The notes beneath the pieces are model-generated. The model had not been told where the DNA came from, made no database searches, and saw only the letters and a list, made by a program, of their open reading frames with translations. Shown in pieces: positions 1,720 through 59,609 of a stretch of DNA of 59,662 nucleotides (within the stretch, counting starts at the first letter, position 1; each line of letters starts with the position of its first letter). Source of the stretch: Leptolyngbyaceae cyanobacterium HOT.MB2.61 (GTDB lineage Bacteria > Cyanobacteriota > Cyanobacteriia > Leptolyngbyales > Leptolyngbyaceae); assembly GCA_023511615.1 (NCBI GenBank), contig JAIMBL010000007.1, forward strand, positions 1-59,662, in the 5' to 3' direction. Both the position numbers and the translations under genes were made by a program.

Positions 1720-1823
1720 AGGGGGAGAAAGGGGAATAGAAAGATGGGGAGATAAGTTTTGAGCTTTGATTTGAGCTTTGAGTTTATATTGGCTGTTAGC
1801 TGTTGGCTCTAACTGTTTTTAGA

Positions 1824-1916
1824 GCAAATTTAAATTGCGAATTTGGCAGATCATTGATGAAACCAGCGATTACAACGATTTCACAATCCAGAATCTAAAA
1901 TCCAAAATAGTATAAG
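1824..1916 (+). repeat. Interspersed repeat R4, copy 2
   Basis: Shares the GAAACCAGCGATT core and the ATCTAAAATCCAAAAT tail with copy 1 at 93-180. It lies in the gap between glpK and the DUF6671 gene, which also holds C/T-rich filler (about 1921-1965) and no recognisable gene. Confidence 0.65.
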
Positions 1917-1999
1917 TTTTCCTCCTCGCCTTCCCGCTCCTGCCCCACTGCCCCTACTCGCTGCCTGATGGAACCGTTAATTATCTCACACTGGACCCG

Positions 2000-2860
2000 T
2001 CAGGGATTGCAATAATTGCATTGAGCCGGGTCGGCAACTTCAAGGCCATCGGGAAAGAGGATTTCCTGGGTGAACTCGCATCTTTGACAGCGATACAGGG
2101 CAATATGAGTCAGGGGGGTTGGCAGCCCGCACAGACCACAGGGTAAGCCTGGCCGTCGCTCGACGAGTTCAAACCCTGGGGTGGCACAGGCGGGGCAGGC
2201 ACAGTTAATTTTTTTGACCAGGTCGTGAGTAGCTTTTTCAATCACGGCCATGCGGGTGGGGTTGTAAAGGGCTCGCATATCCGTTTCTAGATGGATGGTG
2301 CCGTTGGGCGATCGCTCCAGCGCGATCATCACAGCCTCTAAAAGCTGTCGCTCACTGGTAATTCCTTTGAAAATCTCATCCGGTTGCTTTGATGACTGAC
2401 TGACCATGACCACCAGGCCGTGTTCGGGAAAGCCGACTTTTTCGGCAAACGCCAGAGCCGACTGAAAGTCTTGAACTGTGGTGTGGCTGTAGTTGGTTTC
2501 GAGGGAAAACTCCTGTCCGACAATTTCCAGCTGATTCGTTTTGTCCAGCAGTAAAACCAGTTCCCGGTTACAGGGAATGGCAGGAAAGCTGGGGTGGGGC
2601 GCAAACACTCCCTCACTGGCGATCGCCAGCGTTTCCCCTGTCAATTCCAGCGCCTTTTCTGCCTTCAATCGGGCGGCTTCCACCTGGGTACCCGGACGTT
2701 CTCGATCTCTCGTAAAGGTGCCAAAGGCGTCGGTATCCAGCCCCTCTGGAACCATTACCCGCAGGCCCAACTCCCGCTCCAGGATGGGAGCGATCGCCTT
2801 TTCCTTGTGGTGCATCGTTGCCAGAACTGCGATCCGCTGGGTAAAAACAGGATGAGTCAT
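2000..2860 (-). CDS. DUF6671-type protein with C-terminal zinc-ribbon cysteines
   Basis: 286 residues, resembling the DUF6671 family common in cyanobacteria, whose function is not established. The N-terminal two thirds look like a compact alpha/beta domain (IAVLATMHHKEKAIAPILE at the start). The C-terminal 70 residues contain the pairs CACPAC, CGLCG, CQRC and CNYC, eight or more cysteines that could bind two zinc ions. No signal peptide or membrane segment is seen, so it is probably cytoplasmic. The ATG start is preceded by a purine-rich AAAAGGCGG stretch. It is transcribed in the same direction as glpK but 280 bp upstream with a repeat between, so co-transcription is uncertain. Confidence 0.75.
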   Translation of the reverse strand: MTHPVFTQRIAVLATMHHKEKAIAPILERELGLRVMVPEGLDTDAFGTFTRDRERPGTQVEAARLKAEKALELTGETLAIASEGVFAPHPSFPAIPCNRELVLLLDKTNQLEIVGQEFSLETNYSHTTVQDFQSALAFAEKVGFPEHGLVVMVSQSSKQPDEIFKGITSERQLLEAVMIALERSPNGTIHLETDMRALYNPTRMAVIEKATHDLVKKINCACPACATPGFELVERRPGLPCGLCGLPTPLTHIALYRCQRCEFTQEILFPDGLEVADPAQCNYCNP

Positions 2861-3002
2861 ACCGCCTTTTCACTCGTTGAAACCATACTCCATAGCAATC
2901 TTTGCTTGAGTAAAGCATCTCTCGATCAAGGGAATCAGGGAACCGAGGGAATCGAGGTGTGCTTGGATCTGAGTAAGAACCACTATAAAACTCTTAACCC
3001 TT

Positions 3003-4907
3003 TCACCGGGATCGTTCACTGTTGCGGCTAAACTTGCCGTCCTGAAATGCATTGCCAATGCCTTTAATAATACCGCGCCCAATCAGGCCAATACCGCGCC
3101 CAATCACATCTGTCAGGAGATAAACTACCCCACTACCTACAAAGGAAATGGCAGAACGAAGGCGGGGGGCGATCGCATCCCGCGCTTCCAGGGCCAGTGT
3201 GACGGCCAGCGGAATTCCCGAAAGCTCTGTCAATTCTTCATTGCGAGGGGAATAGATAGAGACTCTGGTGATGCCCCCTTCCTGGAGAGTGAATAGATCG
3301 TACCGACTCTCAAAAATGGCCGTTGGCTCGCCAAAGTACTGCTCCATCCGATAGCGCCAGGATAAATTGTTGCGAAATCGCTCAATTTCTCGCGTCGAAA
3401 GAAGTCGTTTGTCGTAAAAATTGCGCTTGATCGTTTCCACATTCCCAAAACGGTTTAGGAGCGGTTGCATCACCCCATTGGCCACTTGAACGATCAGATT
3501 TTGCAGCAGCATTTCCATCCGCCTCATTGCTTCCACAGTGCCAGTTTCATAGGAAGTATCGTCAATGGTGAGGGGCGTTTGAAACAGAAGGTGGGCCAAA
3601 AATTCGGGCATTAAAGGAATTTTGTCCAGAATTCCTGTCTGCACAACGTCCGCATCCCGCAACAGAACGTTCACGATTTCGATTGGCTGATTGTTAAGTT
3701 GCAGAGTGTAGTACTTGCCAAAGAAGTCCGTCGTAGCGGTCTGCCAGAGGTCCAGCAAAATCACCGTTTGTTTTTCTTCCAGTTGCTCAGAACTTACCTG
3801 GGAAAAACGTAGATCGTCTAAAACATCTTCCAACTTGCGCAGAATGGTATAGAGCAATTCCCGCTTCTTCTCTTCCCTCAGAATGTCAATTTCTAAAGGG
3901 GTTTCGGTCAGGTTGCGGAGGCTGGTTTGTAAGCGGGCAGCCGTCATATCAAACAGAGCTGCACGGATCGAGCGCAGGGAGGTAGGAGTCGGAGCAGTGA
4001 GGGAAGTGGAGCCAGGAGTAGGAGAAGTTGAAGGGGACGGTAGGGGTAGCGCCTCTGTGCCTGGCTTTGATGGAGTGGGTATGGCGAGTGGAGGAGAGGG
4101 GGAAGAGGGAAGTTGGGAAGGTTCCCTCCGGCGAGGAGGTGCTAAAAGTCGATTGACCAGCCAGCGGGCTGCCCGTAGTTCACGGTGGCGTCCGGCCAGG
4201 ATGAGTTCATCCAGAGGAGAGAGGTTGGGGTTTTGGAGCTGGGTACTGAGGAGGGCGATCGCCGCATCAATTTGCCGGGTGCCTGACTGACGCAAATTGC
4301 GACGCAAAACCGCTAGAGGGGTATCGGTTTCAGAGGGGGCCGTTGGGGGAATGGAGGGCAAACGCTCATCACCAGTGGTCTTCGCCGGAACTTGGGCGGC
4401 GGTCAGTGCCTGGCTAATAGTTTGCATCGCCAGACTCCAGTAGGTTTGCCCTGCAGCAACCTGCCGGATGGCAGAAACCAATGTTTGAATATCCACCCCT
4501 TTCGGACAGTAACCTTCAGCTCCAGTTTGCACGGCCGTTGCCAGTTGCAGGGGGTCTTGCCTGGCACTGAGCAAGAGGATTGGGATCTGGGGAAACAGGG
4601 CTTTAATTTGCTCACACACAGCCACTCCGGCATTCCGCCCGGTTCGGGATTGCCCTAAATCCAGGCTCATCAAGATCAGCTCAGGAGCGATCGCCCCATC
4701 CTCAACCCCTTCACCCACAGGATTTTTCATCCAATCTTGCAACACCCGAAGAGCGGTTGTCCCAGTATCCGCTTCAAACACAATTCGCAAATCGGGAACC
4801 TGCTCCAATGCAGCCACCAATCCCAACCGAAAAACCGGATCATCCTCAATCAGCATTAACCGGATTAAACGGCGATGTTGGCGATTCGTTTCCGGTGGGT
4901 TGCTCAT
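3003..4907 (-). CDS. Response regulator with DUF3685 (Ycf55-like) domain
   Basis: 634 residues. Residues 14-155 form a receiver-like domain: acidic residues E21-D22-D23, and K136 in YCPKG at the usual conserved-lysine site. The strand that normally ends in the phospho-acceptor Asp reads ELILMSLDLG, placing Ser81 where Asp is expected, so ordinary phosphorylation is doubtful. A Pro/Ser/Thr-rich linker follows (about 265-305). The long C-terminal half matches the DUF3685 family of cyanobacteria and plastids (Ycf55-like), whose role is unknown. The REC-DUF3685 fusion is a known cyanobacterial arrangement. No DNA-binding domain is apparent, so an output through protein contact is more likely than transcriptional control. 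Confidence 0.8.
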   Translation of the reverse strand: MSNPPETNRQHRRLIRLMLIEDDPVFRLGLVAALEQVPDLRIVFEADTGTTALRVLQDWMKNPVGEGVEDGAIAPELILMSLDLGQSRTGRNAGVAVCEQIKALFPQIPILLLSARQDPLQLATAVQTGAEGYCPKGVDIQTLVSAIRQVAAGQTYWSLAMQTISQALTAAQVPAKTTGDERLPSIPPTAPSETDTPLAVLRRNLRQSGTRQIDAAIALLSTQLQNPNLSPLDELILAGRHRELRAARWLVNRLLAPPRRREPSQLPSSPSPPLAIPTPSKPGTEALPLPSPSTSPTPGSTSLTAPTPTSLRSIRAALFDMTAARLQTSLRNLTETPLEIDILREEKKRELLYTILRKLEDVLDDLRFSQVSSEQLEEKQTVILLDLWQTATTDFFGKYYTLQLNNQPIEIVNVLLRDADVVQTGILDKIPLMPEFLAHLLFQTPLTIDDTSYETGTVEAMRRMEMLLQNLIVQVANGVMQPLLNRFGNVETIKRNFYDKRLLSTREIERFRNNLSWRYRMEQYFGEPTAIFESRYDLFTLQEGGITRVSIYSPRNEELTELSGIPLAVTLALEARDAIAPRLRSAISFVGSGVVYLLTDVIGRGIGLIGRGIIKGIGNAFQDGKFSRNSERSR

Positions 4908-5004
4908 ACGTGATTAGATTTCCCTGGATATAGGTTACAGGGTAAAGGGGGACGGGTGAAAGGTTAGTCAGGAGGGTAACACTTACGCCAGGGTTTTGCT
5001 CTAT

Positions 5005-5748
5005 TCAAATCCTATCGGGTTCTTCTCCTAATTCACGCAAACGCGCAGCCAATCGTTCAGCCCGTTGCCGTTCCTGTTCAGCCCGCTGTCGTTCCTGCTC
5101 CAGTTGTTGTTGAGCAGCTTCTTCGGGTAGCAGTACCAGGTTCTGATTCTGATCATAGAACCGCAGCCAAAAACAGCTTCCAGAAGGTGGCTCCCGGTCG
5201 ATCGCCCCTTCCCAGAGACCCAACCACAAGCCTAAGGTTTCACACCAAAGCCAACCCCTTTCGTTCGGTTGCAGGGGGTGGTAAGCTCGTCCAACCAGAT
5301 GCCAACCGGCCAGAGAGTCAGGATCAAAGGGATCGAAGATGAAATAATCCGCCGTTTTGAACACCCGTTCGTAAAGGTCTTTCTTCACACCCCGGTCAAC
5401 AGCAGCCGTACTGGGTGATAGCAGTTCCACAATCACATCTGGATAGTGTCCCTGCTCCTGCCACACCACCCAGCCCTGGCGCTCCCGATCGCCCTCCACC
5501 TCAAGCGCTACGAAAAAGTCTGGCCCCCTGAAATCGTGGTTTATCGCTTGCTCCAGACTGTAGTAGACAACCATGTTGCCCCCGGCAAAGAAATCGGAGC
5601 GATCGCTCAAAGCCTGCTGGACTGAGCGAATAAGTACATTCATCGCAATTCGATGGCGATTAGTCTCCAACGGCTCTCCATCGTCAAAGATTAGATCGGT
5701 GGGAGGTGGAGTGGGTTGCCAATCGAGCAACATCCCATCATTTGCCAT
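5005..5748 (-). CDS. Uma2 family (DUF820) PD-(D/E)XK nuclease-fold protein
   Basis: Resembles the Uma2 family, very abundant in cyanobacteria and predicted to have a restriction-endonuclease-like fold; its biological role is unproven. The expected pieces are visible in order: the GPDFFVALEV strand, DVIVELLSPST with the acidic residue before the core strand, and DLYERVFKTADYFIFDP. A C-terminal coiled coil made of EQERQRAE repeats follows. The open frame extends to a TTG at 5769, but the ATG at 5748 follows an AGGATGG purine tract and gives MANDGMLLDW, so I place the start there; ATG 5760 is also possible. It stands alone, with 97-bp and 120-bp gaps on either side. Confidence 0.8.
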   Translation of the reverse strand: MANDGMLLDWQPTPPPTDLIFDDGEPLETNRHRIAMNVLIRSVQQALSDRSDFFAGGNMVVYYSLEQAINHDFRGPDFFVALEVEGDRERQGWVVWQEQGHYPDVIVELLSPSTAAVDRGVKKDLYERVFKTADYFIFDPFDPDSLAGWHLVGRAYHPLQPNERGWLWCETLGLWLGLWEGAIDREPPSGSCFWLRFYDQNQNLVLLPEEAAQQQLEQERQRAEQERQRAERLAARLRELGEEPDRI

Positions 5749-5872
5749 ACCGCGCACCATCCTGAGCAATTGAGGAAGTGAGGGCTCTTGCTTTAGCGTA
5801 GCCTATACCAATTTCCTCAATGACTGCTACAGATTGAAACCTCACCGCCTAGGGAGTGTAGGGAGGCGGGCA

Positions 5873-7843
5873 TTAGTGGTTAGGGGGAGGCAGGACCTCA
5901 TAGGACTCCACCGGATAGGCGTCGGGTGAAGGCGATAGGGATGGTTGGGGTTGAGGGGTATGGATGATGACAGGCGCGGGGCTTGCCAGAGGAGAAGAGC
6001 TGGCTTGGGGTAAAGAAGAAGGAAGGGGGGTGGAAGGGGGCAGGGTGACGTCAGGAATAGGGTCAGGAGAGGGGCTGCTGAAAGAATTCAGGGGATTGGC
6101 TGACCGATCGTCTTCCTCAAGTGGGATAGGAGGTTGGTTGCGTTTCTGCTGGGCGGTCCAGGTGGCGATCGCACCCTGCGCCTCACCATACAGGGCACGA
6201 CCCGGACGGATCTGGGATGCCAGGTTAATCGCTGCTGCTGTTTTGCCCGCCGCTGCAAGAGTATAGGCCCGGTCAAGCAACGGTTGGTCTTCTGCAATTT
6301 GAATGTCGTAGAGCCAGCTAGAAATGGCAGTCTGGGCTTCATGGTACAGAGCTCGCCCAGGACGAATTCTGGAGGCTACCTGAATGGCTTCATCCCGGCG
6401 CTGCTGTTTTGCCAGGGTTTGCGCCTGCTTCAGAATAGGTTCGTCTTCAATCAGTTGAATTTGCCGGTTCCACTGGGCAATCGCCGCCTGAGCTTGAGGA
6501 TGCAGAGGACGTCCAGGGGCAATTTGCCTGGCATAGGCGATCGCCTGTTTTAAGGCTTCCGGTTTTCCAACTACTGCATACCGCTGGGCTTGAGCCAGAT
6601 AGGGGCTATCCTGCACACGCTCAATGTCTTTCTGCCACATGCTAATCAGCGTCTGTGCATAGATTCGCCGGGGTCGCTCTGGCGTAATACCCTGAGCAAC
6701 CTGAATGGCAAGCTGAAAAGTGGGGATCTGTCCCAGGCTCGCAAAGACACTGGCCAGGTTCAACTGGGTCACATCTTGAATTTGGGTTTGCAGTTTAGGT
6801 AAAAGCGCTTTTGTTTGAGAATAAAGCGGGCTGGTCGGCTGAATTTGGCCCAACTGGGAAAATGTCATCCAGAGTTGCCAGAGTTGCTGGTAGAGAGGAC
6901 CTCTGGGCAATGGATCTGCTGTTAGTGACTGAGCCCGACTAAACCAGAGAATGTCTCGCACATCTGGCACCGGAATTCCACGGGGCAATTTCTGAACCAC
7001 TGCGGTTGCCCCTTCCAGGTTAGTTCTGGTAAACAGACGCCCGGCTACAATTCCGTACAGGGTTGCCATCCAGCGTTCGATTTCGGCTTTTCCAGCTTTG
7101 TAGGCATAAGTATCGGGATTGATCTGCTCTGCAAGGGCGATCGCCCGCCCCAATGCCTGAAGATCCCTGGGGGACTGTTTTACGATCAGGCGAGCTTTCT
7201 GAAGGTGATCCGCCGCAATTTCTTCCGCACTGATCTGCTGCCTTAATCTTTCAATGTGTTGCAACCAGTAATCACTCCCCATTTGGGAGAGGGCGCGAAT
7301 CTGCTGTGTTGCTAGAGCCCAATTTCTGGCTTTCATAGCAGCCTGGATAGAATCGATGATGGCCTGTCCCTGGTTGATATCTTTCTGCCAGGTCGTGATT
7401 GCGGCTCTGGCATCTTTATAGATTGGGCTGCTGGGGGGAATTTTTTCAGCGAGGGCGATCGCACCCTTCAGGTCAGCCTCAACCACCTTCATCCGGGCCA
7501 GATCCAAAACTGACACCGACCATTTCTCCATCAAATTCTGGGCACGAGTGTAGAGGGGGTGATCAGCCGACCAATCCCTAACCAGGTCAAGCCCCGCTAT
7601 CAAAGAGTTGACGTCCCCCGATCGGGCCTCTTGCTCCACACAAAAAAGTTTATCCGCATCAAAACTAAGCGATTGGGGCTGTTTGCATTCGGGTAGAGGT
7701 GGCAGCGTCGTTAACCACAAAACGGCTGCCACTCCCGTTCCTGCACAGAACGCCAGCAACCACAACCATGCCAGTGGGCCTGCAAAAATGCTGACTTTCT
7801 TTCCCACCTGGGAGGTAACCCCCGTCAATGTTGACCGTTCCAT
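5873..7843 (-). CDS. Membrane-anchored solenoid-like repeat protein, paralogue A
   Basis: About 656 residues of unrecognised function. One transmembrane segment lies near the N-terminus (around residues 20-43: LAWLWLLAFCAGTG onward) and is followed by LPPLPECK and LFCVEQEARSG, giving two cysteines that could form a disulfide outside the cytoplasm. The remainder is built from helical units of roughly 35-45 residues with the pattern A-I-x-x-W-x-x-x-I-Q plus E-D-x-P-x-L, and I-x-P-G-R-A-L-Y at unit starts. The C-terminus is a Pro/Ser-rich tail. The gene directly upstream (8160-10070) is a full-length paralogue. The frame opens at a GTG (7849); the ATG at 7843 follows a GGGGTG tract and is preferred. 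Confidence 0.7.
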   Translation of the reverse strand: MERSTLTGVTSQVGKKVSIFAGPLAWLWLLAFCAGTGVAAVLWLTTLPPLPECKQPQSLSFDADKLFCVEQEARSGDVNSLIAGLDLVRDWSADHPLYTRAQNLMEKWSVSVLDLARMKVVEADLKGAIALAEKIPPSSPIYKDARAAITTWQKDINQGQAIIDSIQAAMKARNWALATQQIRALSQMGSDYWLQHIERLRQQISAEEIAADHLQKARLIVKQSPRDLQALGRAIALAEQINPDTYAYKAGKAEIERWMATLYGIVAGRLFTRTNLEGATAVVQKLPRGIPVPDVRDILWFSRAQSLTADPLPRGPLYQQLWQLWMTFSQLGQIQPTSPLYSQTKALLPKLQTQIQDVTQLNLASVFASLGQIPTFQLAIQVAQGITPERPRRIYAQTLISMWQKDIERVQDSPYLAQAQRYAVVGKPEALKQAIAYARQIAPGRPLHPQAQAAIAQWNRQIQLIEDEPILKQAQTLAKQQRRDEAIQVASRIRPGRALYHEAQTAISSWLYDIQIAEDQPLLDRAYTLAAAGKTAAAINLASQIRPGRALYGEAQGAIATWTAQQKRNQPPIPLEEDDRSANPLNSFSSPSPDPIPDVTLPPSTPLPSSLPQASSSPLASPAPVIIHTPQPQPSLSPSPDAYPVESYEVLPPPNH

Positions 7844-50035: not shown

Positions 50036-51331
50036 ATGAAGCCTCACATTCGGTTGAAGTTTAGAAAGAATACTTGGTCTCTCAAGGCACCTTATTGGCA
50101 GAATTTAATCACAGATAAGGGGGGTGCTGTTACCCAAATTCACCCAGAGATCGATAAAGTTCTTGAAAGACACCAGTTATCTGTCTGGGTCACAGCCGAA
50201 TTCAAGCCTGAAGGCCAGAACTGGAGCAATGCTGAACTTGAGAGTGGATTGGATCGGATCTATCGGTTGATTTTGCAACATGACCGGGACATTCCCTCCA
50301 GTGTTATTGAGGGAATGTCCTATATTCCAGTTGTAGAAGAGGTTCAAATTTGTGCCATTGGTCAGACTGATTTACCATCTATGCATGCCGTGCAAATGAG
50401 TGCTAATACTGATTTGCGATCGCGACAGGTGATTGGTCTTCCAGAAGCTCATCAGTTTACCGAAGGAGATCCCAGAATCACCGTTGCCGTATTGGATACG
50501 GGCGTTAATCTGGATCATCCAGAGTACAAAGATAACCTGGTGCCGGGATATGACTTTGTCGATATTATTGATGGAGCCGGTAAATTTGTCGGAGATTATC
50601 TGGGATATGACGAAGAACCGGAAGATGAAGTAGGGCACGGAACCCATGTGGCTGGCATCATTGCGGCTAAAGGAGAGGCTGCTCCGAGAGGAGTTGTACC
50701 TAACTGTAAAATTATGCCCATCCGAGTTTTGGGGGCGATGCAGCGGGGCGGCAAACGAGTTGGGGCTGGACTGGTTGACAACATTAATTCAGGGATTAAA
50801 TGGGCGATTGATCACGGGGCGGATGTGATCAATATGAGCCTGGGGATCCAGCATACCGGTGGCGGTTTGCCTCACAAGGAAGTCGTTGATTATGCCAGAC
50901 GTAAAGGTGTCAGCATCATTGCGGCTTCCGGTAACGATGGGCAAGAAAAACTCTACTATCCAGGCGCACTGCCCTATGTGATTGCGGTGGGCGCGATTGA
51001 TGAAGTTGGCAATATGGCCTTCTTTTCTACCTACGGTAAGCAAGTCGATTTTGTGGCACCGGGAACCAATATCTACAGCACCCACTTGAACAATGGCTAT
51101 GCCTTCTCCACGGGTACATCCCATGCCTCACCCTTTGTCGCTGGAGCAGTGGCGCTACTAAAGTCATACGCCCTTAAAAAGAAGGGCATTCGTCTAGCGG
51201 ATAACCAGGTAAAACATGTCTTGCAGCACACAGCCGATAAATTGGATACCCGATTTAAGCATCGAAAAGCCGGGTTCGGGAAGTTAAACCTAATCGATGC
51301 ATTGAAACTATTGGACTACAAGCTCAGCTAA
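50036..51331 (+). CDS. S8 family serine peptidase (subtilase)
   Basis: 431 residues. The catalytic triad is complete: D154 in VAVLDTGVNLDHPEY, H201 in EVGHGTHVAGIIAA and S362 in FSTGTSHASPFVAGAV; the oxyanion Asn is N300 in AASGND. The first 125 residues look like an inhibitory prodomain (QLSVWVTAEFKPEG, ESGLDRIYRLIL), ending just before the catalytic domain. No signal peptide is present, so export, if any, uses another route or the enzyme acts inside the cell. First gene of the six-gene cluster, 34 bp before the next start; a protease that activates or matures a partner protein is a reasonable guess. No good ribosome-binding site precedes the ATG. Confidence 0.92.
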   Translation: MKPHIRLKFRKNTWSLKAPYWQNLITDKGGAVTQIHPEIDKVLERHQLSVWVTAEFKPEGQNWSNAELESGLDRIYRLILQHDRDIPSSVIEGMSYIPVVEEVQICAIGQTDLPSMHAVQMSANTDLRSRQVIGLPEAHQFTEGDPRITVAVLDTGVNLDHPEYKDNLVPGYDFVDIIDGAGKFVGDYLGYDEEPEDEVGHGTHVAGIIAAKGEAAPRGVVPNCKIMPIRVLGAMQRGGKRVGAGLVDNINSGIKWAIDHGADVINMSLGIQHTGGGLPHKEVVDYARRKGVSIIAASGNDGQEKLYYPGALPYVIAVGAIDEVGNMAFFSTYGKQVDFVAPGTNIYSTHLNNGYAFSTGTSHASPFVAGAVALLKSYALKKKGIRLADNQVKHVLQHTADKLDTRFKHRKAGFGKLNLIDALKLLDYKLS

Positions 51332-51365
51332 GTGAACCGTTCTTGTTTGCAATAAGGATAGCGCT

Positions 51366-52867
51366 ATGTCTTCACAGGGGACAGGAATCAATCTGACTAC
51401 TACTATCGGCTTACAAATACGTTTTTGGGGGATGGCCGCTCCCTGGACACGTACAGTGATGGAGCCAACGCTCCGTTTATGGGAAACACGGGAAATTACA
51501 GCGGACAACTGTGGAAATTGACTCCCACTGGAAATGGGCATTATCGATTAACCAATACTTTTCTGGGGGATGGCCGATCTCTAGACACCTACAGCGATGG
51601 AGCCAATGCCCCCTTCATGGGAAACACGGGGAATTACAGCGGACAATTCTGGAAAATTACGCCTACTGGAAACGGTTTCTATCGTCTTACCAATACTTTT
51701 CTAGGCGAGGGCCGGTCTCTAGATACCTACAGTAATGGAGCCAATGCCCCCTTCATGGGAAATACGGGAAATTACAGCGGACAATTCTGGAAGTTAACCC
51801 CCGTCAGATTGATTGAAACAGCCGTTACCCAGGTGCAGACTCGTGTTCAAGAGTTAGAAACTGCCCGGCTAAATCAGCAAAATGCCTTTCAACAAACTCT
51901 AGCGGAGAAAGAAAGACAGTTTCAGCAAGCTCTAGTAGAGAAAGAAAGGCAATTTCAGCAAGCTCTAGCGGAACGAGAAAGAAACTATTATCAGTCTCTA
52001 GAAGCTCAGAAAAAAGCTCATGAAGAAGCTCTGATGGCAATCCAGAATATTGGTGAAAACCAAACCAAGGAAAAAATACTAGAGGCGATTAGAGATGCTC
52101 AAGCGAAGGCAAATAGTGCTCAAGCAGCAGCAGCAACCGCAGAATTGCGATTAAAGCTGGCGAATTTAGCCAGTAGTGTGGCTAGGATTATCGTAACCCT
52201 TGCCGACGAAGTAGCCTCTGCTGAGGCTGCTGCCCATGATGCTATAGAAATGGCATTGCAGACCCAAAAACTTGCTTCCGATGCAGATCGGCTTGATTCA
52301 GGTTCGGCAGCGGCGATCGCTGCCCAACAATTAGCTCAAGATGCACAAACCGCCGCCTCTGGAGCAGATAAGCAGTCCAAAATTGCTGCGGAAAAGGCAA
52401 ACATAGGACGGAGCAAGCTAACCCCCTTACAACAGGTCCTGGATGATATCAAGCCGGATGCCACTCCAGAAGAGATTCAAAAGGCTATTGAAACTGTACA
52501 AACGGGTTTGGAAAAGCTGAAGGGAGAAGCAGGCTATATCACAGAAGTTCACAAGGCAACCAGGGCAGCATTGGAAATGAAATTGAAGGCTCAATCAGCA
52601 AAAGATATGGCTATCGAAAAGGCTGCTAAAGCCGCTCAAGAGTACGATAACTGGGGTGCAATCAGTAGTTTGTTTAATTTCGGAGAGGAGCAAACCTCTC
52701 CAACATCTGAAAGGGATGCAAGTTCAGGCACACCAGAAGAAGCCAATCTAGCACCCAGGGAAATAGACAACTGGCAGATGATTGAGAGCCTATTTCTGGA
52801 CAAGCAGGAGGTAGAGAGCCCGGTACCTCCCTCGTCAATGCCATCCGCAGCAAGTGCACAGGTGTAA
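51366..52867 (+). CDS. Ricin-type beta-trefoil lectin with coiled coil, apparent frameshift near start
   Basis: The uninterrupted frame opens after a TAG at 51355-51357 but has no start codon except a TTG at 51425 inside the first repeat. An ATG at 51366 with AAGGA before it begins in another frame; one extra G in the GGGG run at 51377-51380 would join it to YYYRLTNTFLGDGRS. Three near-identical 47-residue units follow, each with YRLTNTFLG, DTYSDGANAPFMGNTGNYSG and a Q-x-W motif (SGQLWKL, SGQFWKI, SGQFWKL), as in ricin-type beta-trefoils. Then come three 11-residue repeats of the kind LAEKERQFQQA, a long Ala-rich helix, and two copies of a DNWxxIxSLF motif near the C-terminus. No signal peptide. 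A sugar-binding, rod-like protein of unknown role. Confidence 0.75.
51425..51800 (+). repeat. Coding tandem repeat, 141-bp unit, three copies
   Basis: Direct repeats begin at about 51425, 51566 and 51707, differing at few bases, each encoding 47 residues with the block GCCAATGCCCCCTTCATGGG (first copy slightly diverged). Their DNA-level similarity implies recent duplication or gene conversion. Confidence 0.85.
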
Positions 52868-52991: not shown

Positions 52992-54743
52992 ATGAGTACA
53001 ACAAGCCTGACCAGCAATTCCAAATCATCTACCATTCATGCCGTTGATCAGGCATTACAGAGAATTGGTGGGTTGAAAGTAAGGATTGATGATTATGCGA
53101 TTAAAGCCTTAGACGCAACCCAGGCTTACTTTGAGGCAAAGTATCCCAATTCAAAACAATACATTTTGAGCCAGGGTTTAACGGGACGGGTTGAAGAATT
53201 ATCTCAACGGTTGAATGGGATTGGACTTGATGATACAACCCGGCTTTTGTTGTCTACACCTGCAATCTATGCGGCCTTAATTGAAAAAGCGCAAACCGAA
53301 GATAAAGTCAAAAGCGATGACCTGGAAGGTCTTTACAGTTCAGTTTTGAGGGGTGTGGGAGATTTACCCAGACGCTACTTCCTGGCCCGGCTGCTGACCG
53401 CAGTTTTAAATGAATGGCGCATCCAGATTAAAACCAGTAATCGGCAGTGGCAGCAACTGGATGATCAGACCTTAAAGCGCGGAATCCCTATCCGGGCAGG
53501 GCAGGTGGAACCCGCTGTGCAGGAATTATTAGGTCTGGTGTATCGGGTTGGTGATCTTCCCTACTATCTCGACCAGTACATTAATCAGCGGAGCGCGATC
53601 GCCAAAACTGCGTTTACTTCTGCTATTCGGCAGGCCATGCTGGACTACCTGGTGAAGCTGGGTGTTCAGATTAAATCAGAGACCATCTTCAAAGCAGGTG
53701 AATACGACGAGTACTTTGCGCTGGCCTATAACGAAGCGCTGAAACAAAGCACCACCGCAGATGATCCGATCGATACTGCTCGGACCAAAGGGGGGCAGGT
53801 TTCCTGGAATTTTACAATTGACAGTTTCGACAGTGTTGATGCTCAAGGAGTGATCCCTGAAAACATCAAAGCTGCTGGGGTGCTGGACTATCTCTATTAC
53901 ATTGGCGAGTGCATGCAGGTCTTCAACGTCACCAATGCCCTGGTGCTACGTTGGGCCAGTGGCATGCTGGATATTCCAGAAGGGAAAACGGCAGCCGCCC
54001 TCTACCGTTTTCATAAACTGCGAAACGAGCGCAACACCTCAGAAGAAAGAGCCATGCTCTATAAGCGAGTACTCAACAAAGGCAATGGTCGAGTTCTTTC
54101 AAATATGGTGGTCAATCAGTCCTTTCCTGGACTCTGGTATCAGCTCATGCAGGAGGTGACCGACTACATTGACAAAACCGAGGGCAGCCGCTGGGGTGCA
54201 GGCTGGGTATCACGAGCCCCACTGTACCAGGCCACTAAAAACCTCCAGTACAACCTCTCAGAACACATGACGGGTATGGCTCACGTTCAGGTAACAGAGG
54301 ATTACGCCCATCTGCAAGAGGCTCTCGACATTCTGAAATCGCCCGAAATTTTGGGAGACTTTGGGGGGCGTCGCAAGAATGTCTGGAGTGTGATTGAGCA
54401 GATCGCCAAACAAGATCTGGGTAAAACGGTGCCAACGGCAAACCTGCGCAGTCTCGCCGTCGAAGGCAACAAAATTTTCCAGTGGATTGCCACTTTTGAA
54501 GAAGGAGGAGTCCAGGAAGATGCTTTTACTTCCTTTCTGGGGGCAGCCGAAGCCTGGATTATTTCGCAGGCTTCAGTCGGCGATCGCACCCCTTCCAGCC
54601 GCCCTGCTCGCCCCCGGCCTCCATCCAACAACGGTCACACCAGCGAACGGGAAAGATTTGAGAGAGATCTGAAGGATGTCAAAGCGGAGTTCAAAGCCAT
54701 GAGAAAAGAAATCAACGATGGCTTTGACGATTGGGAAGTCTAA
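52992..54743 (+). CDS. Unrecognised helical protein (583 aa) in the 50-59.6 kb cluster
   Basis: I recognise no family. It appears soluble and mostly alpha-helical, without a signal peptide or membrane segment. Segments that may be conserved include VEELSQRLNGIGLDDTTRLL, LLGLVYRVGDLPYYLDQYIN, VLDYLYYIGECMQVFNVTNA and NEGNRVLSNMVVNQ-like VLSNMVVNQSFPGLWYQLMQ. A Pro/Arg/Ser linker near 540-556 (PSSRPARPRPPSNN) precedes a charged helix (RFERDLKDVKAEFKAMRKEI) and the C-terminus NDGFDDWEV, which recalls the DNW motif of the lectin protein. ATG follows a GAGGT site. Same strand, 124 bp after the lectin gene and 77 bp before the next. Confidence 0.75.
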   Translation: MSTTSLTSNSKSSTIHAVDQALQRIGGLKVRIDDYAIKALDATQAYFEAKYPNSKQYILSQGLTGRVEELSQRLNGIGLDDTTRLLLSTPAIYAALIEKAQTEDKVKSDDLEGLYSSVLRGVGDLPRRYFLARLLTAVLNEWRIQIKTSNRQWQQLDDQTLKRGIPIRAGQVEPAVQELLGLVYRVGDLPYYLDQYINQRSAIAKTAFTSAIRQAMLDYLVKLGVQIKSETIFKAGEYDEYFALAYNEALKQSTTADDPIDTARTKGGQVSWNFTIDSFDSVDAQGVIPENIKAAGVLDYLYYIGECMQVFNVTNALVLRWASGMLDIPEGKTAAALYRFHKLRNERNTSEERAMLYKRVLNKGNGRVLSNMVVNQSFPGLWYQLMQEVTDYIDKTEGSRWGAGWVSRAPLYQATKNLQYNLSEHMTGMAHVQVTEDYAHLQEALDILKSPEILGDFGGRRKNVWSVIEQIAKQDLGKTVPTANLRSLAVEGNKIFQWIATFEEGGVQEDAFTSFLGAAEAWIISQASVGDRTPSSRPARPRPPSNNGHTSERERFERDLKDVKAEFKAMRKEINDGFDDWEV

Positions 54744-54820: not shown

Positions 54821-55963
54821 ATGTCTGAAAATCAGGGACTCAAAGAACAAGCCAGAGCCAATGCCCGCTCTATCCTGGCTCAATCCCTTTCTTTTAGAAA
54901 CATGGATCGAGCCGAACAATTAGCCCTATACAAAGACATTGTGGATTCCCAATACCGGGATTTAGCTGAAAGAAGCGGTCAGGCAGAACAGAGCGAGCTG
55001 GCATCGGAAATGAGTGCAGATGACGAGATCAATCGCGACGCTCACCGTACCCGTTTTGGAGACCGCAAAAAGGATGTGGGTGATATTGCCAGTAGTTTCA
55101 TGGACAAAGTTGATTTTCCAGGATTTGTACGGGACTTGGTGGTCGGTGTTTTTGATGCCAACCTGGCCGCCAATGAACGGCAGATGCAGGCTTACCAGAA
55201 TCTCCTGAGAAAGGCAACCCAATCCCTCTCCCAGATTATGGACAAGCATGTTGACGATACAGAAGCCATGTATCGCTTAATTCAATCAGATGATCAATTC
55301 AAAGGGTTTAGAATTGGTATTCCCAGTGGTCGTTCTAACCGTCGGAACCGAGGTGGCGGAGGTAACGACGCAAAACAAGAAGAAACAAAGCCAACACTCC
55401 TTGATCCAAACAATAAACTAGTCAATCTTGATGACAATGCCATCAAAGCCAAAATCTTAGATATGAAACTGGCAATGGCGAAGGAATATCGCACTATGCT
55501 GCGGGAGACTTTGCTGATGGGAGTTTCCCGCCTGGTGGTTGAAAAGGGCACAATTAAAGCAGGTGTGATTTTTGATATTAGGAGCACCGAGACGACCTAT
55601 GACGAAAGCGAAGGTTACGAGCGATTTGATCGACGTGATATGTCGATGCGAGAGGAGTCCTCTCACTTTAGAACAGGCTTTTGGGGCCTTGGCGGCGGCT
55701 ACAGCAACAGGAGAGGCGAGAGTCGCATTAGCATTAAATCTGGCGACTCTAGTGCATATGCAACCACAGACAGTACAACCAATGTATCCGGCAACATAAC
55801 GGGTTCTGTAGAGATTCAATTCAAGTCGGATTATTTCAAGCTCGATAACTTTGCTCAGTTGTTTGATTTAGGTCAGGGGCAACTTGCCCAGGGCCCACCA
55901 CAAACTCCACCGCAACAACTACCGGCTGCCGATCAGGCGAATGCTCCACAAGCGACTCCATAA
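54821..55963 (+). CDS. Unrecognised protein (380 aa) in the 50-59.6 kb cluster
   Basis: No family recognised. Residues 1-160 are helical (ARANARSILAQSLSFRNMDR at 11-30, FVRDLVVGVFDANLAANERQ at 102-121). A basic Arg/Gly linker follows (about 164-182), then a second helix (KAKILDMKLAMAKEYRTMLR, 209-228). Residues 232-345 look beta-rich with repeated Ser/Thr/Gly (SAYATTDSTTNVSGNITGSV at 311-330) and EIQFKSDYFKLDNFAQLF. The C-terminus is Gln/Pro-rich. No signal peptide. The gene ends 15 bp before the next start, so the two are almost certainly co-translated and may interact. Confidence 0.75.
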   Translation: MSENQGLKEQARANARSILAQSLSFRNMDRAEQLALYKDIVDSQYRDLAERSGQAEQSELASEMSADDEINRDAHRTRFGDRKKDVGDIASSFMDKVDFPGFVRDLVVGVFDANLAANERQMQAYQNLLRKATQSLSQIMDKHVDDTEAMYRLIQSDDQFKGFRIGIPSGRSNRRNRGGGGNDAKQEETKPTLLDPNNKLVNLDDNAIKAKILDMKLAMAKEYRTMLRETLLMGVSRLVVEKGTIKAGVIFDIRSTETTYDESEGYERFDRRDMSMREESSHFRTGFWGLGGGYSNRRGESRISIKSGDSSAYATTDSTTNVSGNITGSVEIQFKSDYFKLDNFAQLFDLGQGQLAQGPPQTPPQQLPAADQANAPQATP

Positions 55964-55978
55964 GGAAATCAATCAGCG

Positions 55979-58288
55979 ATGGCTCTGGCAATTTTGCGAT
56001 TTCAAACCAGCGATGGGGTGAAGAGCACCTTTCAGGTTGATCTGGGCAGCAATCGGTTCTATAGCTATGCGATCGGGGGTGAAGATTGCGATCGCATCAA
56101 CGGTCTCAAACGCCTGAAAAATCCTGTTTTCACCTCTCCTTTAATCGGTCCGATACCAGCATCCAGTCTGGGGCGAACGACGTTGGAGGTGCCCAGCGAT
56201 CGCTTCGGTCCTCAGCATCGCGCCATTCAAATTACCAGCTTCCGCACTGCCCAACGCACCGGTCCCGCTTTGTCTGAGATCGTTACAGTGACTGAAACAG
56301 AAGCTGGTCTTCCCAATCAAACCACCGCTTTGGCTCTAGAGGTGAACATGGACAGACAAACGGTTGAAACAGTTCCTTTTCAATACCGGGAAGTGCCGCA
56401 AGTCAGCTCGGCGATGGCGTTCAATCTGGCAGGTCTGCTCAATACGGTGAAGAACGTAGCGCAGAAAGCTGTTAGCGCAGTGGGAACCGTTGCCAGTACC
56501 GCATTACCAGCGATCGCGGGGGCGGTGACAGGGGCTCCCGTTGCTCCGGGTGCAGCACCCGCCAGTGGGGGAGGGATAGCCGCCACGATTGGGGCCATGT
56601 TACCCCAGGTGGCTGGCACGGTTGGAGCCGTATTACCCCAACTACTGGGCAGTAACGCCGTAGATCCAGCTACCGGACAACCTACGAGTAGTGCTCAAAT
56701 TACCAACCTGATTGCCAGCATCCTTCAGCAAATTGGGGCAGGTGCGGCTGTTGCCCCACCCGCAGCAGGAGCCGTCCCTGCTCCAGGAGTAGCCGCTGTG
56801 CAGCCCGCCGCTCAGTTTGCGCCTGCCGCTGTTGCCGTCGCTCCTGGAGTAGCTTCCGCACCGCCGCCACCACCGCCTCCCCTCCCCCCGTCCCTGAGAC
56901 CCTCTACAGCGGCTCGACCAGCCACTGCTGCTACCCGACGCCTGGCGATGGCAAAGGCATTTTCTGACTATGACTTCTATTCCGACTCCTACTCCGATTC
57001 CGACTCTGACTCCTACTCTGGCTCCTACTCCGCTTCTTATACGGCTACAGCCTACGCGTTATCAGACGATGCCTATTCAGAATCGATGTTTCTGCCTGCA
57101 ATCGGGGGCATTCTGTCAGCCATTGCCCCCGCCCTGACCTCGGTTCTTCCATCCCTGCTGCAAACTCTAGGGCCCGGATTGATGGGCATGTTTTCTTCCC
57201 TATTCCAACCTAAGCAGACAGCGGGACAGATGAGTCTTTCTCTGGGACTGGGTGGAGCAGAGCAGGAAGATGAGGCGGCATTGATTGCTCTCAGTTTAGC
57301 GCTGGCGGCTTCTTCCACTCCTGATCTGGTCTACCAGCGAATTGCTGAGGTCACTTTAAGTTTTACCGATGTGATGCCGTTGATGATCCATGGGCGATCG
57401 CAGTTCCTCTATCGACAAGACCAGGAGATCGGATTTCCGCTCACAATTGATACGCCACGACCAATTAAGAAGGCAAGGTTACAACTGTTAGTGAAAGATC
57501 CAAAAACGTTGAAAATCCTGGCGGAACAGAACTACCAGTTAGACAATTTAACCGATGGACCGCTGGCGATCGTGCCAAAGCTGAGTAAGGAAAAGCTGAA
57601 GTCACTCAAATGCAATCGAGATTATCTTGTCTGCGTTGCGCTGGTTTGGTCTGGCAAAGACAAACGCACGGGCGCGAGAAAGCAAATTGGCACCAACACC
57701 ATCCAGCTCATTACATTGGTCGGTGAATATCTGTTCGACCGGATTGAAGGTGCGGCTGAAACGGTGCCACTAAACAATGTGGATGCGTTCCGTGCCTACT
57801 GGCATAAGGTGTGGGAAGGAACCTTTGATAACTCCGTCCGGCGGTTCACCTTTGATTGCAAATACTATTACGCGTTGGAAAGCGATCGCACCAGCAACGC
57901 TCGCATGGAAACCGTGATTCAGAATGAGAATGAGGGTACCCAGCGATCAGGACGCATGAAGACAGGACTGATTATGAGTCCTTATGGGTTGAATGATCTG
58001 CTTGGTCAAATTTCTAGTTATTCCCGTCTGGGAGAAGCTGAGTTAACCGCTCTGCTAGCGTCTGAATTTAAGCAGCAGTTTAGCCATGTCGCCCGGACGC
58101 AGGTAGAGTTCAAAGGACGCAAGGGAGACGCCGTTGCCCTCTGGGTCTATCCAGAGTTCAAACTCCAGCGGGTAATCCTCAAACAGGCTCAAAACACGAA
58201 CGCGAATGGACATGTGCAGGAATTACGCGAGTATTCTGTTTACTTTCCTATGCCTGCCGTTGCTCACTTTATTGGGGTGAGTACATAG
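55979..58288 (+). CDS. Large protein with two hydrophobic segments and flexible linkers (769 aa)
   Basis: Unrecognised. In order: an N-terminal beta-like domain (1-140); a hydrophobic, Ala/Gly/Pro-rich segment (about 148-225); a Pro/Ala linker with a run of prolines (255-305); a Tyr/Ser/Asp-rich stretch of SYSDSDSDSYSGSYS type (329-362); a second hydrophobic segment (370-410, LPAIGGILSAIAPALTSVLP); and a C-terminal domain of about 320 residues that starts near PDLVYQRIAEVTLSFTDVMP. The hydrophobic segments share L-P-x-(V/L)-A/L-x-x-x motifs and are amphipathic rather than classic transmembrane helices. AAGGA precedes the ATG by 11 bases. Pore formation or assembly into a larger particle are possible roles, neither shown. 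Confidence 0.75.
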   Translation: MALAILRFQTSDGVKSTFQVDLGSNRFYSYAIGGEDCDRINGLKRLKNPVFTSPLIGPIPASSLGRTTLEVPSDRFGPQHRAIQITSFRTAQRTGPALSEIVTVTETEAGLPNQTTALALEVNMDRQTVETVPFQYREVPQVSSAMAFNLAGLLNTVKNVAQKAVSAVGTVASTALPAIAGAVTGAPVAPGAAPASGGGIAATIGAMLPQVAGTVGAVLPQLLGSNAVDPATGQPTSSAQITNLIASILQQIGAGAAVAPPAAGAVPAPGVAAVQPAAQFAPAAVAVAPGVASAPPPPPPPLPPSLRPSTAARPATAATRRLAMAKAFSDYDFYSDSYSDSDSDSYSGSYSASYTATAYALSDDAYSESMFLPAIGGILSAIAPALTSVLPSLLQTLGPGLMGMFSSLFQPKQTAGQMSLSLGLGGAEQEDEAALIALSLALAASSTPDLVYQRIAEVTLSFTDVMPLMIHGRSQFLYRQDQEIGFPLTIDTPRPIKKARLQLLVKDPKTLKILAEQNYQLDNLTDGPLAIVPKLSKEKLKSLKCNRDYLVCVALVWSGKDKRTGARKQIGTNTIQLITLVGEYLFDRIEGAAETVPLNNVDAFRAYWHKVWEGTFDNSVRRFTFDCKYYYALESDRTSNARMETVIQNENEGTQRSGRMKTGLIMSPYGLNDLLGQISSYSRLGEAELTALLASEFKQQFSHVARTQVEFKGRKGDAVALWVYPEFKLQRVILKQAQNTNANGHVQELREYSVYFPMPAVAHFIGVST

Positions 58289-58355: not shown

Positions 58356-59609
58356 ATGACCTACAAAAAAGTTCAGTTTATTGCCTATTGCATTCACACT
58401 GGACCTAAAACAATAGGTCTTAAACAACAGTATTTGGGAATTGCTCCCACATCAGCCGACATTGCAGAACGCATTAAGTTAGTCAGAAAAGCAATCGAAG
58501 TAGCGAGAACAAATAGCAACACCAAACAAAGTGACGATGAAACACTGAAAATTTTCATGATGCCAGAGTTCTTCTTCCGAGGCAAAGAAGGGGCTTATGC
58601 GTTAGAACTTATCACTGGTATTCAACGTAAATCTAGAACATGGCTTGAATGGCTAAAAGGTGGTTTCCTCAGCGACCTATCGCGGTTGACAGGCTACAGC
58701 CAGCCTAGGGTTGAAGAGATCGGTTTGATTGGTCTACTTCAAAACCTAGTGAAAGATCAGCAATGGAAAAATTGGATATTTGTCTTTGGCAGTATTATTG
58801 GCAGTTCAGTGGAAACCGATATTACTGACAGGGAAGAAGTATATAACCTTGTGTTAGTGCAAAAAGGTGGATTTGGCGATACGCCTAGGGTTGGGTCAAC
58901 TTTCGCAAAAGTAGTGATGAAAGAACATGTATCTGGTATGGACTTCATCAAAACGTCTGAAAGTGGGGGAGGAGCGTTGCTAGAGCGAGTTTTTCATCCA
59001 CTGACTGTCAACCAGCAACAGCTCGTCAAACATTTAAAGGATTTACTGGCGTTAACAGAAGAACAACTCCGGGCAGCACCTATATCTTTTACAGAGTCAG
59101 AGATCGCCCTGTGGCGAACTAGTGAAAAAGCAAGATTAAACGATTGTCTCACTCCTAACTCATCCCCACAATTTCTTCCCCATTTTCTCTTCGGCCTGAG
59201 ATCTGGGGATGCATATTTCTCAGCTTTATTTCCGCTAATCGAAAAATTCCTCAAAGCCAAGTTGGGAAATGTGAAAGCTCAAGAATTACTATTATCAATT
59301 CGCCGCTCAGAGGAACAACAAAAAGAATACGATGGTTCCTCTGTTTTTGAAATAGATGGCATTCGTTTTGGATTGGAAGTTTGTCTTGACCATGGCGTGA
59401 GGCGCTTGAAGAATTCCAAAAATCTACCCACTATCGATATTCAACTAGTGCCTTCCTGTGGAGCGCAAATCAATGAAGATGCGATAGTTGCTAAAACAAA
59501 CGGTTATGGTTATATCTTTCATTGTGATGGATACGCTGACTATGACGCAAATTGGCTAGGCTACAATAGCGGAGCGAAGAGAGTAAGGATGCATACAAAA
59601 ATAACTTGA
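58356..59609 (+). CDS. Divergent carbon-nitrogen hydrolase (nitrilase superfamily-like)
   Basis: 417 residues. The Glu-Lys-Cys triad of nitrilases can be placed: E71 in FMMPEFFFRG, K185 in STFAKVVMKEHVSG and C343 in GIRFGLEVCLDHGVRR. About 150 residues separate the Lys and Cys, with an insertion (about 200-330) not found in ordinary nitrilases. The end region PTIDIQLVPSCG and KTNGYGYIFHCDG matches the strand and the post-cysteine part of the fold. Substrate unknown; amide hydrolysis or an acyl transfer is expected from the family. Last gene of the visible cluster, 67 bp after the large protein; the cluster may continue past the window end. Confidence 0.75.
   Translation: MTYKKVQFIAYCIHTGPKTIGLKQQYLGIAPTSADIAERIKLVRKAIEVARTNSNTKQSDDETLKIFMMPEFFFRGKEGAYALELITGIQRKSRTWLEWLKGGFLSDLSRLTGYSQPRVEEIGLIGLLQNLVKDQQWKNWIFVFGSIIGSSVETDITDREEVYNLVLVQKGGFGDTPRVGSTFAKVVMKEHVSGMDFIKTSESGGGALLERVFHPLTVNQQQLVKHLKDLLALTEEQLRAAPISFTESEIALWRTSEKARLNDCLTPNSSPQFLPHFLFGLRSGDAYFSALFPLIEKFLKAKLGNVKAQELLLSIRRSEEQQKEYDGSSVFEIDGIRFGLEVCLDHGVRRLKNSKNLPTIDIQLVPSCGAQINEDAIVAKTNGYGYIFHCDGYADYDANWLGYNSGAKRVRMHTKIT

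What the first reader, a model, noticed from the sequence alone, without database searches (positions are those of the whole stretch)
55979..58288. Large protein with paired hydrophobic segments and a Tyr/Ser/Asp-rich linker
Two amphipathic hydrophobic stretches (about 148-225 and 370-410) flank a long flexible linker. The subtilase of the same cluster could cut such a linker. The N- and C-terminal domains look like defined beta-rich units. This organisation suits a protein activated or assembled after cleavage.
Basis: inference. Interest (0 to 1): 0.5.

Follow-up and report, generated by a model that had tools for sequence, protein, structure and literature searches.

The report
Orphan subunit of a toxin-gene cluster
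This cyanobacterial protein matches no known family but sits beside the same partner genes in related clusters that also carry exchangeable toxins and sugar- or wall-binding proteins, so it is probably a structural part of an undescribed toxin-delivery complex.

Summary
The ORF at 55979-58288 is real (769 aa, "p769"), with the layout described: beta-rich N domain (1-107), disordered linker with hydrophobic stretches and a Tyr/Ser/Asp tract, beta-rich C half. Homologues conserve the N domain, the C half and, more weakly, a short block at the start of each hydrophobic stretch. The Tyr/Ser/Asp tract is peculiar to this sequence. The paired hydropathy peaks are no stronger than the linker's own composition gives when shuffled.

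p769 matches nothing informative in Pfam, NCBIfam, PHROGs, PADLOC or PDB. In 17 of 19 loci p380 is the next core gene upstream (one exception is a contig start, one a truncated copy), in the order subtilase - variable binder - p583 - p380 - p769. The core recurs without p769 in Proteobacteria and Actinomycetota, beside amidase/peptidase proteins where scanned. Cyanobacterial clusters carry toxin-domain proteins (EndoU, Ntox11, Ntox30) with short recurrent tags; in three homologues p769's linker has the tag too. The same genome holds tag-bearing proteins on another contig.

Best reading: a scaffold/adaptor of an undescribed polymorphic-toxin delivery complex. Function is inferred. Cleavage is untested and weakened: the subtilase is kept in 21 of 22 non-cyanobacterial loci lacking p769.

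The parts
50036..51331 (+). S8 subtilase, 431 aa; Asp/His/Ser motifs VLDTG, GHGTHVAG, GTSHASP present; no signal peptide seen by eye
   Evidence: PF00082 3.7e-56; alignment to 1dbi_A; motif positions 152, 200, 360
51425..52867 (+). Variable slot 1: ricin-B-type lectin repeats, helical region, two DNWxxxxxLF motifs
   Evidence: PF14200 1.5e-8; motifs at residues 408 and 448
52992..54743 (+). p583, conserved core protein of unknown family
   Evidence: no Pfam match; found in 38 of 43 loci
54821..55963 (+). p380, conserved core protein; helices plus one long, low-confidence beta hairpin in the model
   Evidence: 39 of 43 loci; model mean pLDDT 64.7
55979..58288 (+). p769, the protein of the finding
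55979..56299 (+). p769 N domain (residues 1-107), beta-rich, conserved
   Evidence: 57% mean identity to homologues; strands in model
56375..56428 (+). p769 conserved block 133-150 (PFQYREV..SSAM), leading into hydrophobic stretch 1
   Evidence: 56% mean identity; F134, Y136, E138, S143, A145, M146 nearly invariant
56420..56653 (+). p769 hydrophobic stretch 1 (148-225), poorly conserved beyond residue 150
56969..57085 (+). p769 Tyr/Ser/Asp tract (331-369), not conserved
57086..57208 (+). p769 hydrophobic stretch 2 (370-410); M370 and P373 invariant in 17 sequences
57326..57724 (+). p769 C domain 1 (450-582), Ig-like beta sandwich
57725..58285 (+). p769 C domain 2 (583-769), best conserved part (59%), fold not resolved
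58356..59609 (+). p417, in the position of variable slot 2 after p769; no family match; the NGMKVIFD tag of that slot was not found in it

Best explanation
p769 is a conserved core subunit, most likely a scaffold or adaptor, of a multi-protein toxin-delivery complex encoded by this cluster. Shown: p769 follows p380 and is clustered with p583 and a subtilase; in the relatives the same clusters carry exchangeable ligand-binding proteins and proteins ending in toxin domains, with short recurrent sequence tags. Inferred: the tags dock the variable proteins onto the core; the slot-1 proteins (lectin, peptidoglycan-binding, LamG, crystallin or fascin-like) recognise the target; the beta-rich ends of p769 bind partners while its disordered hydrophobic middle packs against the assembly or a membrane; the subtilase matures or releases a component of the core.
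For: p380 is the next core gene upstream, same strand, in 17 of 19 p769 loci (gap 0-74 bp in 15, 360 and 525 bp in two). Toxin domains in the clusters: EndoU (L013, 3.6e-6), Ntox11 (L056 3.1e-27; L057), Ntox30 (L066, exactly at the cutoff), all on tagged proteins. Slot-1 proteins: 9 of 11 scanned have a ligand-binding-type domain. Tags: [NS]xL[LFIM]xLE 46 against 2.0 shuffled (max 6 of 100 rounds); DNW..LF 21 against 0.45, NGMKV[IV]F 12 against 0.0; in 326 ORFs of 22 non-cyanobacterial loci 0, 1 and 0. Three p769 homologues carry the first tag in the linker, scores 21.9-24.5 against at most 7.8 in the other fifteen. Own genome, contig C158: tag-bearing proteins, one with an HELAH motif. Mobile: on a Tolypothrix plasmid beside IS701.
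Against: No experiment, expression or interaction data. p769 is missing from 22 non-cyanobacterial loci, so it is not essential to the core. The window's own p769 lacks the tag (best score -2.7, 265 of 500 shuffles reach it), and the three tagged homologues are close relatives (62-79% identity), possibly one event. L071 has p769 but no tag was found. p150 and p260 are not found in the window's own assembly: gap or loss. Several cargo and slot-2 proteins scanned have no toxin match. No immunity gene was recognised. Linker hydropathy peaks are at shuffled level. Structure matches for p380 are not significant.
Confidence: 0.5

Rival explanations
1. One reading: the subtilase cuts the Tyr/Ser/Asp linker of p769, separating two hydrophobic-plus-beta halves that become active or assemble.
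For: Subtilase with intact catalytic motifs in the same cluster; linker predicted disordered and so accessible; subtilase found in 15 of 19 p769 loci; of the other four, L019, L058 and L063 begin too near to show it and L018 is a truncated copy.
Against: Subtilase also in 21 of 22 non-cyanobacterial loci without p769; Y/S/D tract not conserved; no cleavage data.
Confidence: 0.15
2. p769 is itself a membrane-active part: its hydrophobic linker helices insert into a target or own membrane, forming or plugging a path for toxin entry, with the beta domains outside.
For: Best linker hydropathy peaks 1.20-1.95 in 17 sequences; M370 and P373 invariant across 17 sequences; 149-180, 375-396 and 399-408 modelled as helices, at low pLDDT.
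Against: Peaks are borderline or below membrane spans and no stronger than shuffled linkers give in most sequences (the second peak of L071 and L019 is the exception, 1 and 7 of 300); moments 0.08-0.43; stretch 1 beyond residue 150 is poorly conserved (34%).
Confidence: 0.15
3. The cluster is an intracellular defence or abortive-infection system in which the subtilase and toxin-like proteins act inside the producer.
For: Subtilase resembles PADLOC 'subtilase' (6.9e-31) and weakly IetS; no classical signal peptide seen by eye in the window's cluster proteins.
Against: No PADLOC match for p769, p380, p583, p260, slot 1, p417 or two C158 proteins; lectin, peptidoglycan-binding and LamG partners and cell-wall amidases in three of four sister operons scanned point outside the cell; no ATPase partner among the window cluster genes scanned.
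Confidence: 0.15

Closest known systems
Streptomyces umbrella (Umb) toxin particles (PMC11062931, start of abstract and passages seen)
   Same: Secreted multi-protein toxin particle; exchangeable lectins (ricin B and concanavalin types) with polymorphic toxin domains on a conserved scaffold; a protease-fold component.
   Different: There, UmbC has ALF repeats, a coiled-coil stalk, a TAT signal and a C-terminal toxin, and UmbA an inactive trypsin fold. Here toxins are separate proteins with short tags, the protease is a subtilase with intact motifs, no ALF family was reported by Pfam for the proteins scanned, and the core proteins are orphans.
PVC / extracellular contractile injection systems (PMC3482391, passages seen)
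   Same: Ntox11 is listed there under PVC delivery and subtilisin among PVC-associated proteases; cyanobacteria and proteobacteria are among the hosts; many such toxins lack immunity genes.
   Different: No tail protein was recognised in the genes scanned with PHROGs. Phage-named Pfam matches were sub-threshold: Phage_TAC_6, Phage_scaffold, Gp5_trimer_C.
Polymorphic toxin systems (PMC3482391, passages seen)
   Same: Variable C-terminal toxin domains on a recurrent N-terminal part; EndoU, Ntox11 and Ntox30 domains.
   Different: The recurrent part is a tag of about ten residues rather than one of the trafficking domains in the passages seen.
Mycosin, type VII secretion subtilase (NCBIfam TIGR03921)
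   Same: Best NCBIfam match of the window subtilase, 209.1 bits.
   Different: Below that family's cutoff (278.75 bits); no T7SS partner was recognised by Pfam among the window genes scanned.

Membership tests
Polymorphic toxin system | Variable C-terminal toxin domains on a recurrent N-terminal part | tested here: met
   In relatives' clusters: EndoU, Ntox11, Ntox30 at cutoff, on tagged proteins. EndoU lies mid-protein and in L066 the tag is at residue 64. This concerns the cluster; p769 itself has no recognised toxin domain.
Polymorphic toxin system | Adjacent immunity gene | tested here: inconclusive
   No immunity family among the proteins scanned, but small ORFs and many downstream genes were not scanned.
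Polymorphic toxin system | Toxicity of the C-terminal domains | not testable with these tools
   Needs expression.
Umbrella toxin particle | ALF repeats in the toxin-bearing scaffold (UmbC) | tested here: inconclusive
   No ALF family reported by Pfam for the proteins scanned; Umb sequences were not compared directly.
Umbrella toxin particle | Variable lectin or ligand-binding component | tested here: met
   Slot 1: ricin B, PG_binding_1, LamG, crystallin, fascin; 9 of 11 scanned.
Contractile injection system (eCIS/PVC) | Phage-tail tube, sheath and baseplate genes in the cluster | tested here: not met
   The eight genes of the Tolypothrix plasmid cluster give no tail family in PHROGs, only protease and endolysin-type wall-binding matches; p769 and one p380 have no match in 50,697 phage records. 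Tail genes elsewhere in these genomes were not searched.
Mycosin (T7SS) | Score above the family's curated cutoff | tested here: not met
   209.1 bits against 278.75.
IetAS defence | IetS-type S8 protease with partner ATPase IetA | tested here: inconclusive
   IetS only 1.4e-7 over part of the profile; no ATPase among the window cluster genes scanned.

The most novel reading that the evidence does not exclude
The cluster encodes a previously undescribed machine, found in Cyanobacteriota, Proteobacteria, Actinomycetota and a Desulfobulbus lineage, that builds a toxin particle from p380, p583 and p260: p380 multimers form a ring or barrel from its long beta hairpins, p769 is the cyanobacterial cargo hub whose disordered hydrophobic linker sits in or plugs that barrel, and tags of about ten residues load interchangeable toxins, with interchangeable binders for aiming and a subtilase to trigger release.
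Probability: 0.22. Interest if true: 0.85.

Novelty: new variant of a known kind. Interest (0 to 1): 0.57.

Why it matters
If right, this adds a delivery route for polymorphic toxins built from orphan proteins and found in several phyla, on plasmids as well as chromosomes. It offers testable rules: three short tags that predict cargo, a slot that predicts targeting, and p769 as a subunit of the tag-bearing cyanobacterial branch. It also gives a likely role to a family annotated only as hypothetical on the plasmid records seen. Even if the delivery reading is wrong, the shared tags and fixed gene order suggest that these orphan proteins work together.

Tried and rejected
Paired hydropathy peaks as a conserved mark: I first took them as support.

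Profile comparison of p769N and p769C with the N domain of the amidase proteins: similar motif order by eye, but P = 0.14 and 0.21, not significant; p769C against p380, p583, p260, p150, and p769 domains against the 350-aa protein of the sister operons (four sequences): nothing.

Idea that every p769 linker carries a worn version of the tag: rejected; 3 of 18 score 21.9-24.5, the rest at most 7.8, a score also reached by an unrelated window ORF (7.7).

Idea that p380 is a beta-pore former: helical parts reach pLDDT about 90, but the two 22-residue strands (243-264, 313-334) only about 36-59. Foldseek lists FliF rings, phage collars, iota/CDTb and lysenin pores, but the best E is 0.032, VIA Z at most 5.2, viral library best E 0.017. 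Unproven; kept only for the novel case.

Phage origin: p769 and one p380 no match in phage records; p769 none in viral contigs. First genome-contig scan with the p769 protein found nothing. PDB profile searches with p380, p769 and p583: nothing convincing. Foldseek and VIA on p769 list Ig-like sandwiches at 445-591, too common to assign a function.

Paper searches aimed at this cluster; none of the titles listed describes it. One search listed 10 of 112 papers and 8 of 11. Only open-licence papers are held, so absence from print is not shown.

Rows left out before counts: six loci (L055, L059, L060, L064, L065, L067) that repeat L013, L019, L015, L016, L014, L018. Loci L055-L092 were fetched with p260, so its presence there is by construction. 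L019 and L020 are two contigs of one genome; L014 and L018 two loci of one genome.

Full report
OBSERVATION. The ORF 55979-58288 (+) is open, starts with ATG and encodes 769 aa. The hydrophobic stretches, the Tyr/Ser/Asp tract and the beta-rich ends are there. The Y/S/D tract (22 of 25 residues) is far beyond shuffling (0 of 2000) but particular to this sequence: the other 17 sequences reach 6-15. The paired hydropathy peaks are not: shuffled linkers reach the window's best peak in 141 and its second in 80 of 300. AlphaFold with 8 sequences gives mean pLDDT 43: 107-449 under 50, N domain blocks 54-79, 481-580 at 76-88, 584-769 mostly low. The 450-582 domain is an Ig-like sandwich: best VIA Z 10.3, rmsd 2.7, 104 aligned, with many unrelated chains at similar Z. 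This common fold names no function.

FAMILY. p769 has no Pfam match, no PHROGs match, no PADLOC match, no PDB match with a 17-sequence profile, and in NCBIfam only a match of its linker to an adhesin model at E 0.005, 14.8 bits. It occurs in 7 of 388 genomes of its class, own genome included, in none of 50,697 phage records, and on three plasmid records, two Tolypothrix and one Microchaete. Over 17 sequences mean identity to the window is 57% in the N domain, 56% in the block 133-150, 44% in 367-397, 53% and 59% in the two C parts, and 23-34% in the rest of the linker. M370 and P373 are invariant.

CLUSTER. BLAST first showed subtilase, p583, p380 and p769 together. Iterated profile searches over 43 loci (six duplicates dropped) found p380 in 39, p583 in 38, subtilase in 36, p769 in 19. 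p260 is in 41, but most loci were fetched with it. In 17 of the 19 p769 loci p380 is the next core gene upstream on the same strand; the other two are a contig that starts inside the gene (L019; the same genome's L020 shows p380 before the start of p769) and a truncated second copy in Adonisia (L018) with no p380 in the 18 kb held. The named p769 loci are cyanobacterial except Aurantiacibacter, L071. The 24 loci without p769 are two cyanobacterial contig fragments (L066, L069) and 22 of Sphingomonas, Burkholderia, Roseobacter, Dyella, Cellulomonas, Desulfobulbus and others. In 21 of these 22 the subtilase is present; L090 is a 4.6-kb fragment.

CARGO AND BINDERS. In four non-cyanobacterial operons scanned, a large protein precedes p380: Amidase_2 with C70 and C92 peptidases in Burkholderia (L054), Amidase_2 with C70 in L085 and L088, C70 without Amidase_2 in L073. 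A related N-terminal domain heads such a protein in 19 loci. In cyanobacterial clusters, slot 1 between subtilase and p583 holds ricin B (window), PG_binding_1 (L015, L020, L053, L056), crystallin (L062), LamG (L063, L068) or a fascin match (L017). Two more, L013 and L061, gave nothing above cutoff; those of L014, L016, L057, L058 and L070 were not scanned. Downstream proteins carry EndoU (L013), Exo_endo_phos2 (L019; no tag found), Ntox11 (L056, L057) and Ntox30 exactly at the cutoff (L066); several others had no convincing match.

TAGS. The motif [NS]xL[LFIM]xLE (consensus NRLLALEQ) occurs 46 times in 375 ORFs of 21 loci, against a shuffled mean of 2.0 and maximum of 6; 29 of the 46 lie within the first 20 residues, up to three in one protein. 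DNW..LF occurs 21 times (0.45 expected, maximum 3), mostly in slot-1 proteins, in three loci in a downstream protein, and not in the slot-1 proteins of L013, L053 and L062. NGMKV[IV]F occurs 12 times (0 expected). In 326 ORFs of 22 non-cyanobacterial loci the counts are 0, 1 and 0. The shuffles ignore homology: related proteins share tags by descent, so the counts show recurrence, not independent origins. Four of the 21 loci show no first tag: window and L020 (contig ends), L053 (IS701 follows p260) and L071. Three p769 homologues (L062, L063, L068) carry the tag in the linker; the window's does not.

OWN GENOME. The window ends 53 bases after the stop of p417 and is a whole contig. The same genome has a 7,125-base contig, C158, with tag-bearing proteins by eye: 977 aa with STLFDLEQ near its start and an HELAH motif at residue 861, and 465 aa starting MGNRLFELEQ; a 513-aa neighbour without the tag has a sub-threshold EndoU match. 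Whether C158 follows the window is unknown. p150 and p260 were not found in the assembly.

MECHANISM. Shown by sequence: recurrent gene order, variable binders and toxins, recurrent tags, conserved subtilase motifs. Inferred: p769 is a scaffold/adaptor in a toxin-delivery complex; tags dock cargo; slot-1 proteins aim. The absence of classical signal peptides, judged by eye, would fit assembly in the cytoplasm and release by lysis or an unknown route. As the subtilase occurs where p769 does not, p380, p583 or p260 are likelier common substrates than p769.

COMPARISON. It works most like umbrella toxins: exchangeable lectins and toxins on a conserved scaffold (PMC11062931, passages). Membership is not claimed: ALF repeats were not seen in the proteins scanned. 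It does not look like a contractile system: no tail gene among the eight genes of the Tolypothrix plasmid cluster. As a cluster it meets the main mark of polymorphic toxin systems (PMC3482391, passages), with an undescribed core; hence 'new variant of a known kind'.

Noticed in passing
L097 (G000:C158) 797-6903: Own-genome contig with tag-bearing, toxin-like proteins: HELAH motif in a 977-aa protein, a 465-aa NRLFELEQ protein with a weak BLF1 match (E 0.071, below cutoff), and a sub-threshold EndoU match.
   Followed up: partly
window 51362-51430: Slot-1 lectin ORF starts at a TTG inside its first repeat, while the repeat reading continues upstream towards a TAG (read by eye); possible frame error or unusual start.
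   Followed up: no
window 58356-59609: p417 has no family match; by eye PEFFF, KEH and EVCLDHG recall the Glu-Lys-Cys residues of nitrilases (recalled, untested).
   Followed up: partly
L018 6365-9024: Second locus in Adonisia turfae: p769 reduced to a 501-aa ORF without the N domain, followed by p150 and p260, with no p380, p583 or subtilase in the 18 kb held.
   Followed up: partly
L043-L049: Divergent loci of the same class: p260 relatives in 7 of 7, in six as a longer 500-666 aa protein, and p380 relatives in 6 of 7: possibly a third branch of the system.
   Followed up: partly
L030-L034: p583 relatives of 363-386 aa; the other core families were not detected in the 18-19 kb fetched.
   Followed up: no
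L071: Aurantiacibacter sediminis holds a cyanobacterial-type cluster with p769 (25% identity to the window): candidate for horizontal transfer.
   Followed up: no
L053 1-746 and 20692-22002: IS701 transposases with one protein accession lie on either side of the Tolypothrix plasmid cluster, the second directly after p260.
   Followed up: no
L054 20203-21255: 350-aa protein between p583 and p380 in sister operons; no Pfam match, motif SSYDRDGLYASKVYYE.
   Followed up: partly
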